Below are positions 41,084 to 44,366 of a stretch of DNA of 64,000 nucleotides, one piece after another (position 1 is the first letter of the stretch; every line of letters begins with the position of its first letter). A model generated the notes under the pieces. That model was not told where the DNA came from and searched no databases. It saw only the letters and a program-made list of their open reading frames with translations. Source of the DNA: Pseudofabraea citricarpa (taxonomy: Eukaryota > Ascomycota > Leotiomycetes > Helotiales > Dermateaceae); the NCBI GenBank assembly GCA_029641185.1, contig JAPWGK010000008.1, positions 620,001 to 684,000 of the forward strand, read 5' to 3'. Made by a program: the position numbers and the translations under genes.

Positions 41084-42626
41084 GATTGCTTGTACAACCG
41101 AGAAAAAGCTACGGTACAGTCTCGAGAGATATTGAGGTTGACGACCGAGAAAAAGACATGCCGATCTCTTGCTTTCTTATATATTTACAGACCAGTTACG
41201 GCCTTCTCTTTTCAGTTAAAAGCATTCCATAGGGTAGCAATGCTCGCAGCGCGCTAAGAAAGTGGTACAATCTTCCAGCAAGTTGAGGTGCTAAAATGCT
41301 ATAACGAGCCGCCGTGCTTGGACTGACTTACCAATATCAAGAAGGTCGCTGTGCACGACAGACAATATTAATATTGCGTCGCGTGCATGAAAACCTCGTC
41401 GCAGCTTGGCAGACTCTTTGAATGGAGAAGGTACTCAACATTTCTACATTAGGGCATGTTCGAAATGCTTGGTCTTACCTCTTGGCTGCTTGCCGATCCA
41501 TGATATTGTAGCTGTTCGGCTGGATTAAGGTTGGGCCTCTTACGGACCACGAGATTCGTCTAATTGAACTGGTATACATGCGGAAGGAGCTTAAGATATC
41601 ATCCGACTTGGCACTGCACGTCACCCTGTAGAAAATTCGGCACTTGACAAAGACAACCCTTGCTACAATAGGAAGCAGGAAATAAAATGACTGATGTTAC
41701 CAATCTTAGTACTCTGTATGGCTATGGCGACTGGAGAATTCGGTATCGATCCTTAAGCCGATTGCACCCTAGCGAGGTAGAGGACTTGGTCAGTTGTAGC
41801 TTTGATAACATGCGTTTGATACGAGGTTGTGACTTTCCACTTCAGATGCGATAAAGGTATCCAGGGTTATTTCAGTAATTAACAAATTCTCAACTCCAAA
41901 CTCTTGATAGTCGGAGAAACAGAGAACCTTAATTATAGCAGTAACAGACATGGATGATAAAATAAGCGAGTGGATGCGCGACGTGTGTTGTGAATGAGAT
42001 TAATGAAACACAGTCAACTTGGAAGTTTCAACCTCCAGTGGGAATTTTATATTTATGCTGGTTGAGAAAGTCTAGAAGGCGTCGTGATCTCGAGAAGACT
42101 GAGTTGGTTCTCGTCTGCCCTGACTCGCTTATTCGCCCACTCTAGCTCTTCCGGATTGTCTTGTATCATCTCATCTGACTGTTTTCCTTTTTGAAATACT
42201 CATTTCTTTTCTCACAAACCAGTTTCTGTGTCCAAGTTGAAGAAATTGGCTAACCTCTGTAAGTTCTTATTATATTTGCTGGAGAAGCAGCTTACTTCTA
42301 TGCAGAGCATCCTTGTTACAACCAAACCCGAGTCTAATGTATCAATTGACGTAGTTACTTTTGTGCCCTTCACTTTTACATACTTAAACGCCCAATTTTC
42401 AGTTGCTGATATCTATTTCTCAGCCTTGATTTCTCTTCCCCGCTAGGGAAATCGTCCGAACGCGTAGTAGCGAGAACAACACTCCAATAGAAGCCACTCT
42501 ACGGAATTTTTAAAACAAGCACGTAACAGCTATAATACACTCTTATGGTCTTTTCCATGCTATGACGCCAGTCATTCGTTCTTTTATATACTGTATTAAG
42601 GCAAAAAGTCACCCAACAAATAATGT
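41084..42626. other. Intergenic between propeller gene and tRNA
   Basis: About 1.5 kb holding the propeller-gene promoter and the 5' flank of the tRNA gene. The open frame at 42228-42446 is short and hydrophobic without support. No other feature is recognised. Confidence 0.5.
41176..41183 (-). promoter_or_regulatory. Candidate TATA box
   Basis: TATATAAG on the minus strand, about 95 bp before the start codon at 41083, a normal distance for a core promoter with a short leader. Confidence 0.45.
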
Positions 42627-42761
42627 GGCGCTATGGCGGAGTGGTTAACGCGACGTATGTTCAACTAATTCTACCTTGCGTTTGTAGCATCAACTAACAT
42701 TCATGAAGGCCCTGCTAAGGCGTTTCTTTCGAGAGCAAGAGTTCGAATCTCTTTGGCGTCG
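42627..42761 (+). tRNA. tRNA-Ser(GCU) with an ectopic intron-like insert
   Basis: The two mature parts are 42627-42654 and 42709-42761, together 81 nt without CCA. The acceptor stem GGCGCTA pairs with TGGCGTC (two G-U pairs), with discriminator G. The D arm is GCG/CGC with loop GAGTGGTTAA. The anticodon stem is ACGCC/GGCGT around loop CTGCTAA, anticodon GCT. The long variable arm TTCTTTCGAGAGC is typical of class II serine tRNAs. The T arm is AAGAG/CTCTT with loop TTCGAAT. The internal promoter is intact: A box TGGCGGAGTGG (42634-42644), B box AGTTCGAATCT (42740-42750), and a ten-T terminator follows at 42768. A 54-bp insert lies between nucleotides 28 and 29, in the 5' strand of the anticodon stem, not at the canonical 37/38 site; only its removal restores the stem. 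Confidence 0.88.
42655..42708 (+). other. Spliceosomal-type intron candidate inside the tRNA
   Basis: 54 bp starting GTATGT, with ACTAAC 11 bases before a terminal AAG. Length, donor and branch match the mRNA introns of neighbouring genes (47-56 bp). By the one-base G ambiguity it could also be cut one base later. Excision leaves AC joined to GCC. Confidence 0.7.
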
Positions 42762-42767
42762 TCCCGA

Positions 42768-42777
42768 TTTTTTTTTT
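42768..42777 (+). terminator. RNA polymerase III poly-T terminator
   Basis: Ten consecutive T residues starting seven bases after the tRNA discriminator base, the standard Pol III stop signal. Confidence 0.9.
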
Positions 42778-44366
42778 GGCTTTCATAATAGGAATGTAAT
42801 TCTTTTTGCGCGCAGTAGAGGAATCTGATACTGGAAATGGCGGGTCTGTCGCCTCGACCGAGATACTTTGCGAGACCAAAAAGTTCCACAAACCCTGACG
42901 TCTGGGGTTCTAAAGTCTTTGAATCTACTGTACAATTTCTAATAAACTCTAGCTGCGCTTGCCAGGGGGGTCCGATAATTGTATTATAATAAAGTCTGCT
43001 CATGCATGCTATTGCATGGAAAGCCTCGAATTTCCGGACGCGTTTTTATATCGCTGCATAGATGAGGGATATGCATATAAAGACATGTGAATTCATTACA
43101 TATACGTAGGTAGGATAGTAAAAATCATCGCTACAGGTGCCAACAATCCTTAGGTCTGGGTAACAAGAAACTGCGCCTGCCGCGTAGTAGAGCGCAAAGC
43201 CTTCCCTTCATCAACCCGAGTAAATAAAGTACTTAAGTGAGTAAAAGTGCACTGTGTGGTTTCAAAGAAAGATAAAGATGAGGTTCTTATAACAGCCATT
43301 ATAGTAGTTGTTATTCAAAACTAAACTAAACTGTGGCATTATAACCAAATCTCTTGGAATCCAAGAAAATTGATATGCAGCTTATCCCTATGTTTTCATT
43401 CTTCTACAATTTCTACTGACCAACTCATTCTTGATCTTACAAATCATCTCTGCTTGTCAGATAGATAGTGAAGGGGCTCTCCAAAAAGCTCGAAATATGA
43501 TTAAAAGACAATAGCAGAACTAAAAGGCTCGTCAGGGAGAAGGGTTTACCTGCGGAGGTAATAATTAGCCAACAAAGTAGTTGTAATAAGTCTCAGTTAT
43601 ATGTGATGTCATAATGCCCATCTGATTTTTGCTGAAATTAATCTCTATGTCGATACACCAGTACTACCCAATGCAGTATAAGGTGATCGAGGGGTTATTA
43701 CCTAGGACTCCACGCAGAGTCAGTGGGATTTACTGGATATACGTATTTGAGTCGGGTTGGTAATAGTTATTGTATTCTAGAGGATCGTAAGGATCGTGGT
43801 ATTATATAGGAGTGGTTATTCACCTAGTAGTCACCTGATATTACTGACACTCTATCTTGCGGAATGATCTTTGCTTTTTAACTCGTAGATACTTTTTCTT
43901 TACTCATCAGGTATATTTGGATTGTGAACTGATTCAAATATCAACTGCATATGAACATAATAGTGCAAAAGGATTCGCTTTGCTTGAAGTGAAGTTAAGA
44001 TGATATGAAATGGTTAGATTAAGCCCTGTAACTTATAAGAATGAGCATTATCTTCAAAATAAGAGGAACAGAAAACGTATTGTTTAAGAATGCGGGTCGC
44101 CTTCTTCTGGCGATAAAATTATAAACTTAATAAGGAACGACTCTGATATCCTCGTCTCTATTCCACGTAACTCAACAAAATTTGACTATATGATATGGCA
44201 TACTTTCAGATATATTTAACAGCATAGACCTAACTAAGTAACAAAGACGAATCCTTCACCTGCAAGCTATCTTAGCTATAGGTCACAATAAGCTCACAAA
44301 GAGCCAACAAGGGAATGCAGCATAAATTAATCTAGTACTTTTACATGAAGTTCAAACATGTGAGCC
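42778..44366. other. AT-rich intergenic region
   Basis: About 1.6 kb between the tRNA terminator and the 3' end of the MOSC gene. It is AT-rich with no protein-like frame. The minus-strand frame at 42701-43003 is in part antisense to the tRNA and not credible. Confidence 0.55.

What the first reader, a model, noticed from the sequence alone, without database searches (positions are those of the whole stretch)
42627..42777. tRNA-Ser(GCU) gene split by a spliceosomal-looking intron in the anticodon stem
Seen: acceptor, D, variable and T arms, A and B boxes and a T10 terminator are intact, but the anticodon stem's 5' strand is broken by 54 bp (42655-42708). Removing it exactly restores ACGCC/GGCGT around loop CTGCTAA. 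The insert has GTATGT at its start, ACTAAC 11 nt before its AAG end, and the same size as local mRNA introns. Known: eukaryotic nuclear tRNA introns lie at 37/38 and are cut by the tRNA endonuclease; mRNA-type introns are known in some fungal U6 snRNA genes, also Pol III products, but I know of none in a tRNA. Inference: either a tRNA spliced by the spliceosome, or a recent intron insertion that silenced this copy, or an ectopic tRNA intron cut by other means.
Basis: partly seen in the sequence, partly recalled or inferred. Interest (0 to 1): 0.93.

Follow-up and report, generated by a model that had tools for sequence, protein, structure and literature searches.

The report
tRNA gene with an mRNA-type intron
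In a fungal genome, two copies of a serine transfer-RNA gene are interrupted by what looks like an ordinary messenger-RNA intron, which suggests that the cell's mRNA splicing machine also finishes a tRNA, a job normally done by a separate enzyme.

Summary
Window 42627-42761 is tRNA-Ser(GCU), split by 54 nt (42655-42708) at position 28/29, in the anticodon stem. The insert has GTATGT, ACTAAC (branch A 11 nt from the end) and AAG, like this genome's mRNA introns. Of 525,732 54-mers from 264 kb, 2 score as high: the insert itself and a candidate mRNA intron.

The genome is Helotiales-like. A second split copy lies 405 kb away: exons 81/81 identical, same insert site and length, insert middle no longer alignable, splice motifs kept. 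Conserved exons around a diverged insert argue that both are still used as tRNA, so the insert must be removed. Two intronless GCU copies also exist.

The only U6 gene detected in this genome carries three mRNA-type introns, and both detected U3 genes one each. No tRNA-endonuclease motif was evident (weak test).

Best reading: a Pol III tRNA matured by the spliceosome. No RNA data or orthologues were available, and the census for other split tRNAs is incomplete. Ten searches of an open-licence library listed no such tRNA.

The parts
42627..42654 (+). 5' exon of tRNA-Ser(GCU), mature positions 1-28 (acceptor 5' strand, D arm / A box, first two bases of the anticodon stem, AC)
   Evidence: cmscan RF00005; identical in the second copy
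42655..42708 (+). 54-nt insert, read as a spliceosomal (U2-type) intron at tRNA position 28/29
   Evidence: sequence; motif score, 2 of 525,732 54-mers as high, one being itself; 54-nt insert at the same site in the second copy
42655..42660 (+). 5' splice site GTATGT (GTACGT in the second copy)
42693..42698 (+). branch site ACTAAC, branch A at 42697, 11 nt before the intron end
   Evidence: 21 of 26 local candidate introns have 9-14 nt
42706..42708 (+). 3' splice site AAG (AAG also in the second copy and in 7 of 26 candidate mRNA introns)
42709..42761 (+). 3' exon, mature positions 29-81: rest of anticodon stem, loop CTGCTAA with anticodon GCT (42714-42716), variable arm, T arm / B box, acceptor 3' strand, discriminator G
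42741..42749 (+). B-box core GTTCGAATC, 107 nt downstream of the A-box start (42634)
42768..42777 (+). T10 run, Pol III terminator (T8 at the same offset in the second copy)

Best explanation
This is a working nuclear tRNA-Ser(GCU) gene, transcribed by RNA polymerase III, whose 54-nt insert in the anticodon stem is a U2-type spliceosomal intron. The pre-tRNA cannot form its anticodon stem until the spliceosome recognises GUAUGU, ACUAAC and AAG, excises a lariat and joins C28 to G29. End processing and modification then follow as for any tRNA. A second gene does the same. SHOWN from sequence: the intron anatomy, its twin, exon identity, loss of similarity in the insert middle, and mRNA-type introns in U6 and U3 of the same genome. 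INFERRED: transcription, splicing, and that the spliceosome is the agent.
For: (1) Motifs: donor + branch + acceptor score 22.0 (window) and 20.5 (twin) against a median of 22.7 for 24 candidate mRNA introns; 2 and 3 of 525,732 54-mers reach these scores, namely the insert itself, a candidate mRNA intron of L063 and, for the lower score, one more in L051. (2) Paralogue comparison: exons 81/81 identical, insert 26/54, middle (positions 10-36) 4/27, motif positions 14/15; with gaps allowed the middle aligns no better than shuffles (fraction 0.73), and no 14-mer is shared in the flanks compared. (3) Split and intronless copies differ at 10 (C2) and 11 (C39) of 81 sites; all 10, and 8 of the 11, fall in acceptor and T-stem pairs that stay paired. 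(4) No intronless copy with the split-type exons was found that could act as conversion donor (4 candidates, 4 scored). (5) U6, by established knowledge a Pol III transcript, has three mRNA-type introns of 55, 50 and 52 nt by my reading; both U3 loci have one. (6) Internal control: canonical 37/38 introns of six tRNA-Lys loci show the same picture of 0 or 2 exon differences in 72 and diverged introns. (7) A and B boxes and a terminal T run intact; no T4 inside either insert.
Against: No RNA evidence of any kind. Two intronless GCU copies exist, so the split copies need not be essential. Only one genome could be examined, with no orthologues. AAG is a less usual fungal acceptor (U3 introns: all but one YAG, PMC5832005), though AAG ends 7 of 26 local candidate introns. 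The ATTCAT between branch site and acceptor is conserved in both copies without a splicing reason. Absence of T4 is not telling: 8 of 26 candidate mRNA introns have T4, so its absence from five small-RNA introns is unremarkable. The downstream 100 bases of the two loci align better than shuffles (fraction 0.0015; upstream 0.07), which I put down to the shared T run but did not test further.
Confidence: 0.84

Rival explanations
1. Pseudogene pair: an mRNA-type intron landed in a tRNA gene, the gene was silenced and was duplicated before or after; the two intronless GCU genes supply the tRNA.
For: Two intronless GCU copies exist. The review PMC4090602 (passages read) says that short insertions in D or T arms, mostly found in one of many synonymous eukaryotic tRNA genes, are supposed to mark pseudogenes.
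Against: Two dead copies whose insert middles no longer align (4/27) should not keep 81/81 exon bases. The splice motifs are kept, 14/15.
Confidence: 0.07
2. Ectopic tRNA intron cut by the tRNA splicing endonuclease (TSEN), as in Cyanidioschyzon and Crenarchaeota, with chance resemblance to an mRNA intron.
For: No tool result on this organism speaks for it. Ectopic tRNA introns, some in the anticodon stem-loop, are known in a few eukaryotes (PMC4090602, passages).
Against: At either boundary choice the central helix would have 0-2 of 4 pairs and the inner helix 1 of 3 in both copies (a weak test, since seven canonical introns of this genome also give only 2-3 of 4 with boundaries taken from ARAGORN). 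The minimum-energy folds of the two pre-tRNAs agree only in the acceptor and T arms. Matching splice motifs in both copies would be a coincidence.
Confidence: 0.04
3. Identical exons reflect gene conversion between the two loci, not selection, so the constraint argument fails and function is unproven.
For: Intergenic conversion among tRNA genes is known (PMC4090602, passages).
Against: Conversion would have to copy 28 and 53 bp on both sides of a diverged 54-bp insert while skipping it and the flanks. No intronless donor with these exons was found. The review describes equalisation of tRNA genes including their introns.
Confidence: 0.05

Closest known systems
mRNA-type introns in fungal U6 snRNA genes (Tani and Ohshima 1989; Canzler et al. 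2016; both seen only in the reference list of PMC5832005)
   Same: Pol III transcript, small structured RNA, U2-type intron of fungal size, and present in this very genome
   Different: Host RNA is a tRNA with internal A/B-box promoter; the intron breaks the anticodon stem; tRNAs have their own, unrelated splicing route
Spliceosomal introns in fungal U3 snoRNA (PMC5832005: passages, and the section on introns)
   Same: Spliceosomal intron in a small structured RNA; both U3 loci detected here carry one at the same site
   Different: Host is a snoRNA; same intron class
Canonical eukaryotic tRNA introns at 37/38 (TSEN substrates)
   Same: Interrupted anticodon arm, conserved exons and variable intron; ARAGORN calls introns in 19 of 40 fetched tRNA loci here
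   Different: Position 28/29 instead of 37/38; GT-branch-AG motifs; no endonuclease motif evident
Ectopic tRNA introns of Cyanidioschyzon merolae, nucleomorphs and Crenarchaeota (PMC4090602, passages)
   Same: Intron outside 37/38, in some cases in the anticodon stem
   Different: Those of C. merolae and archaea are linked to bulge-helix-bulge motifs and the tRNA endonuclease; those of the Guillardia nucleomorph are 3-24 nt with the mode of splicing unknown
Spliceosomal introns in rDNA of ascomycetes (recalled, no call)
   Same: mRNA-type intron in a gene not transcribed by Pol II, in ascomycetes
   Different: Pol I transcript, rRNA host

Membership tests
U2-type spliceosomal intron | 5' splice site GTRNGT-like | tested here: met
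   GTATGT and GTACGT
U2-type spliceosomal intron | branch site RCTRAY at 6-36 nt from the acceptor (range from PMC5832005) | tested here: met
   ACTAAC, branch A 11 nt from the end, in both copies
U2-type spliceosomal intron | AG acceptor | tested here: met
   AAG in both copies; AAG in 7 of 26 local candidate introns
U2-type spliceosomal intron | length in the host's range | tested here: met
   54 nt; local candidates 47-84, median 54.5
U2-type spliceosomal intron | removed as a lariat by the spliceosome | not testable with these tools
   no RNA data
functional nuclear tRNA gene | cloverleaf after removal of the insert, A and B boxes, T-run terminator | tested here: met
   (pairs checked for acceptor, anticodon and T stems)
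functional nuclear tRNA gene | exons under purifying selection | tested here: met
   81/81 against 4/27 in the insert middle; one pair of paralogues only
functional nuclear tRNA gene | mature, charged product | not testable with these tools
   no RNA data
canonical eukaryotic tRNA intron (TSEN) | intron one base 3' of the anticodon (37/38) | tested here: not met
   insert at 28/29, upstream of the anticodon
bulge-helix-bulge tRNA intron | two 3-nt bulges around a 4-bp helix at the junctions | tested here: inconclusive
   0-2 of 4 central pairs and 1 of 3 inner pairs in both copies and at both boundary choices; the test is weak, as seven canonical controls give 2-3 of 4
group I / group II intron | catalytic core of hundreds of nt | tested here: not met
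   insert is 54 nt; no such family among the 3 Rfam matches at E<=1 in 42000-43500

The most novel reading that the evidence does not exclude
tRNA-Ser(GCU) of this helotialean fungus is a genuine substrate of the spliceosome: the first known tRNA class matured by mRNA splicing. The intron is old (the insert middles of the two loci no longer align), so it should recur in related Leotiomycetes.
Probability: 0.8. Interest if true: 0.93.

Novelty: new variant of a known kind. Interest (0 to 1): 0.88.

Why it matters
tRNA introns and mRNA introns are treated as two separate systems with different enzymes, places in the cell and evolutionary histories. A tRNA that needs the spliceosome would link them, show that a Pol III transcript with internal promoter and no mRNA cap can be spliced, and add tRNA to U6 and U3 as small structured RNAs invaded by mRNA introns. 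It also warns that tRNA finders which allow introns only near 37/38 may miss such genes or call them pseudogenes. The claim can be tested at once by tRNA-seq and by looking at named relatives.

Tried and rejected
Rejected or weak: BHB/TSEN reading (control weak because canonical eukaryotic introns do not form strict BHBs). Common RNA fold of the two pre-tRNAs: the minimum-energy folds agree only in acceptor and T arms. T-run avoidance as evidence for Pol III: not significant. Upstream TTAAG: in all four GCU copies at -31 to -25, and in 3 of the 38 other fetched tRNA loci at any position within 60 nt; suggestive only. Genome-wide pattern GTAYGT..CTAAC..B-box: 11 matches against 9 for the reversed control; by cmscan at the gathering score only the two split Ser loci are tRNAs, so other donors (GTAAGT, the commonest here) remain unsearched. 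The tRNA family census is incomplete: 63 of 1,716 candidates scored, 62 hits, neither split Ser copy among them. 15 of the 62 lie on C36 (probably mitochondrial, my inference); 40 of the other 47 were fetched, 7 were not. Other collections: viral contigs, no match for two patterns; genome contigs, one match, an archaeal tRNA-Ser that ARAGORN calls without an intron. The one SRP RNA match (26 of 243 candidates scored) and 40 5S loci (47 of 1,980 scored) show spans without room for an intron. Literature: ten searches (the cap) listed no tRNA with a spliceosomal intron by title and abstract start; searches matched 630 and 66 papers of which 20 each were listed; subscription journals are mostly not held. 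Passages of PMC11782384, PMC3978253, PMC4810243 and PMC6221363 describe none either. PMC4829304 (Canzler) is not held.

Full report
OBSERVATION. cmscan places a tRNA at 42627-42761 on the + strand with 38.6 bits against a gathering score of 29. The sequence shows an insert of 54 nt, 42655-42708, one base ambiguous. Without it the 81-nt RNA has a 7-bp acceptor stem (with G-U pairs), a 5-bp anticodon stem ACGCC/GGCGT around CTGCTAA (anticodon GCU), a variable arm and a T stem AAGAG/CTCTT; a T10 run begins at the seventh base downstream. Counting from the 5' end, the anticodon falls on 34-36, so the insert sits between 28 and 29.

THE INSERT LOOKS LIKE A LOCAL mRNA INTRON. In the window plus 20 regions of 10 kb I collected candidate mRNA introns by a frame rule: at least 100 open codons on both sides and a stop inside. 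Of 98 groups that met it, 26 also had a recognisable donor and branch site; the other 72 were dropped, so the set leans towards good motifs. Their lengths are 47-84 nt, median 54.5; 12 of 26 donors are GTAAGT; branch A to end is 9-14 nt in 21 of 26; acceptors are CAG 11, TAG 7, AAG 7, GAG 1. After dropping two nested readings (24 left), a motif score puts the window insert at 22.0 and its twin at 20.5; the median of the 24 is 22.7, and each tRNA insert scores at least as high as 9 of the 24. Among 525,732 54-mers on both strands of the same 264 kb, 2 reach the window insert's score and 3 reach the twin's. Listed, they are the window insert itself, a candidate mRNA intron in L063 and, for the lower score, a sequence in L051.

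A SECOND SPLIT COPY. The genome (44.0 Mb, 43 contigs) shows four tRNA-Ser(GCU) places: the window copy; C42:257959 (L002), about 405 kb away; and two uninterrupted copies, C2:337485-337565 and C39:820514-820594 (coordinates). The two split copies have 81 of 81 exon bases alike, while the inserts, both 54 nt at the same site, agree at 26 of 54. The agreement is at the ends: 14 of 15 donor/branch/acceptor positions, 15 of 18 in the last 18, but 4 of 27 in the middle. Allowing gaps, the middle aligns no better than shuffled sequence (fraction 0.73 as good), and no 14-mer is shared in the flanks compared; the downstream 100 bases align better than shuffles (0.0015), which I ascribe to the shared T run. 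Conserved exons, conserved splice motifs and a free-running middle are what a removed intron in a working gene should look like. Canonical introns of six tRNA-Lys loci in this genome give the same picture: 0 or 2 exon differences in 72, diverged introns.

THE SPLIT LINEAGE HAS BEEN KEPT AS tRNA. Window and C2 copies differ at 10 of 81 sites; all 10 form five acceptor or T-stem pairs (4:77, 7:74, 57:73, 58:72, 60:70) that stay paired. Window and C39 differ at 11: 8 in four such pairs, 3 in the variable arm. These changes may predate the intron; the identity of the two split copies' exons, by contrast, has lasted through the divergence of their inserts.

SAME GENOME, OTHER SMALL RNAs. The only U6 match at E<=0.001 (47 of 2,951 candidates scored; 33.2 bits, below the cut-off of 44) is interrupted. 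Reading L047 gives four exons and three introns of 55, 50 and 52 nt with GTAAGT/GTAAGC donors and ACTAAC/ACTAAT branch sites; the boundaries are my reading. Two U3 loci (24 of 626 candidates scored) each carry an intron at the same place, 62 and 54 nt, as in the vast majority of Pezizomycotina (PMC5832005, section read). That paper says that U3 and U6 are so far the only small structured RNAs known to be often interrupted by an intron (passage). So this cell probably already splices a Pol III RNA with its spliceosome.

THE OTHER tRNAS. Of 62 tRNA hits (63 of 1,716 candidates scored), 15 lie on C36 (probably mitochondrial). I fetched 40 of the other 47. ARAGORN calls introns in 19 of 40, all at 36-40, i.e. 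at or near the ordinary site (some of its amino-acid names are doubtful). The pattern GTAYGT..CTAAC..B-box has 11 matches in the genome, 9 for the reversed control; by cmscan only the two split Ser loci are tRNAs.

ORGANISM. An importin in the window is 88% identical to one of Phlyctema vagabunda and 80% to one of Coleophoma cylindrospora; Phlyctema is Helotiales, Dermateaceae. The species is not identified.

RIVALS. Pseudogene: hard to square with 81/81 exon identity. TSEN: position wrong, no BHB evident (0-2 of 4 central pairs), though my control was weak. Exon-only gene conversion: needs two short tracts that skip the insert, and no intronless donor with these exons was found.

AGAINST MY READING. 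No RNA data; no orthologues could be searched; two intronless GCU genes can supply the cell; ATTCAT between branch site and acceptor is conserved without explanation (ACTAACATTC recurs in U6 intron 1 and in one candidate mRNA intron of L060, and AATTCATCAG ends one U3 intron).

NOVELTY. The intron class is known, the host class, as far as I could search, is not: ten full-text searches of a library limited to open licences listed no tRNA with a spliceosomal intron. In some searches only 20 of 630 and 20 of 66 matching papers were listed. PMC4090602 (passages) describes eukaryotic ectopic tRNA introns as endonuclease-type or unexplained, and its main text has no word beginning with 'spliceosom'. 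PMC4810243 (passages) states the usual division: endonuclease for eukaryotic tRNA introns, spliceosome for pre-mRNA introns. I therefore file it as a new variant of a known kind: a spliceosomal intron in a small RNA gene, here a tRNA.

Noticed in passing
L047:1450-1715 (G000:C2, about 955,490-955,750): The only U6 snRNA gene found carries, by my reading, three mRNA-type introns (55, 50, 52 nt), so the spliceosome's own catalytic RNA must be spliced three times.
   Followed up: partly
L079:1433-1752 and L080 about 1439-1750: Both U3 snoRNA loci found have a spliceosomal intron at the same site, 62 and 54 nt, interior diverged.
   Followed up: partly
3' flanks of the tRNAs in L014, L016, L018, L020, L021, L022: Six tRNA-Lys(CUU) loci lack a T4 run within 40 nt downstream and share a trailer CAATCCCCGAGG..., which could pair with the tRNA's own 3' acceptor strand (pairing by eye).
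   Followed up: no
3' flanks of the tRNAs in L028 and L043: Two related tRNA loci (ARAGORN: Thr and undetermined) share the trailer CAGATCGTGTCACCCATCAGCTCAACAAGG and lack a T4 run within 40 nt.
   Followed up: no
window 42699-42704 and L002: ATTCAT between branch site and acceptor is kept in both tRNA introns; ACTAACATTC also occurs in U6 intron 1 and in one candidate mRNA intron (L060), and CTAACAATTCATCAG ends the U3 intron of L080.
   Followed up: no
G000:C12:2624-3940 and 113956-115272: Two groups of four tRNA hits in mirror-image order about 110 kb apart, suggesting an inverted duplication near a contig end.
   Followed up: no
window 42567-42626 and the three other GCU loci: All four tRNA-Ser(GCU) copies have TTAAG at -31 to -25 upstream; 3 of 38 other fetched tRNA loci have it within 60 nt.
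   Followed up: partly
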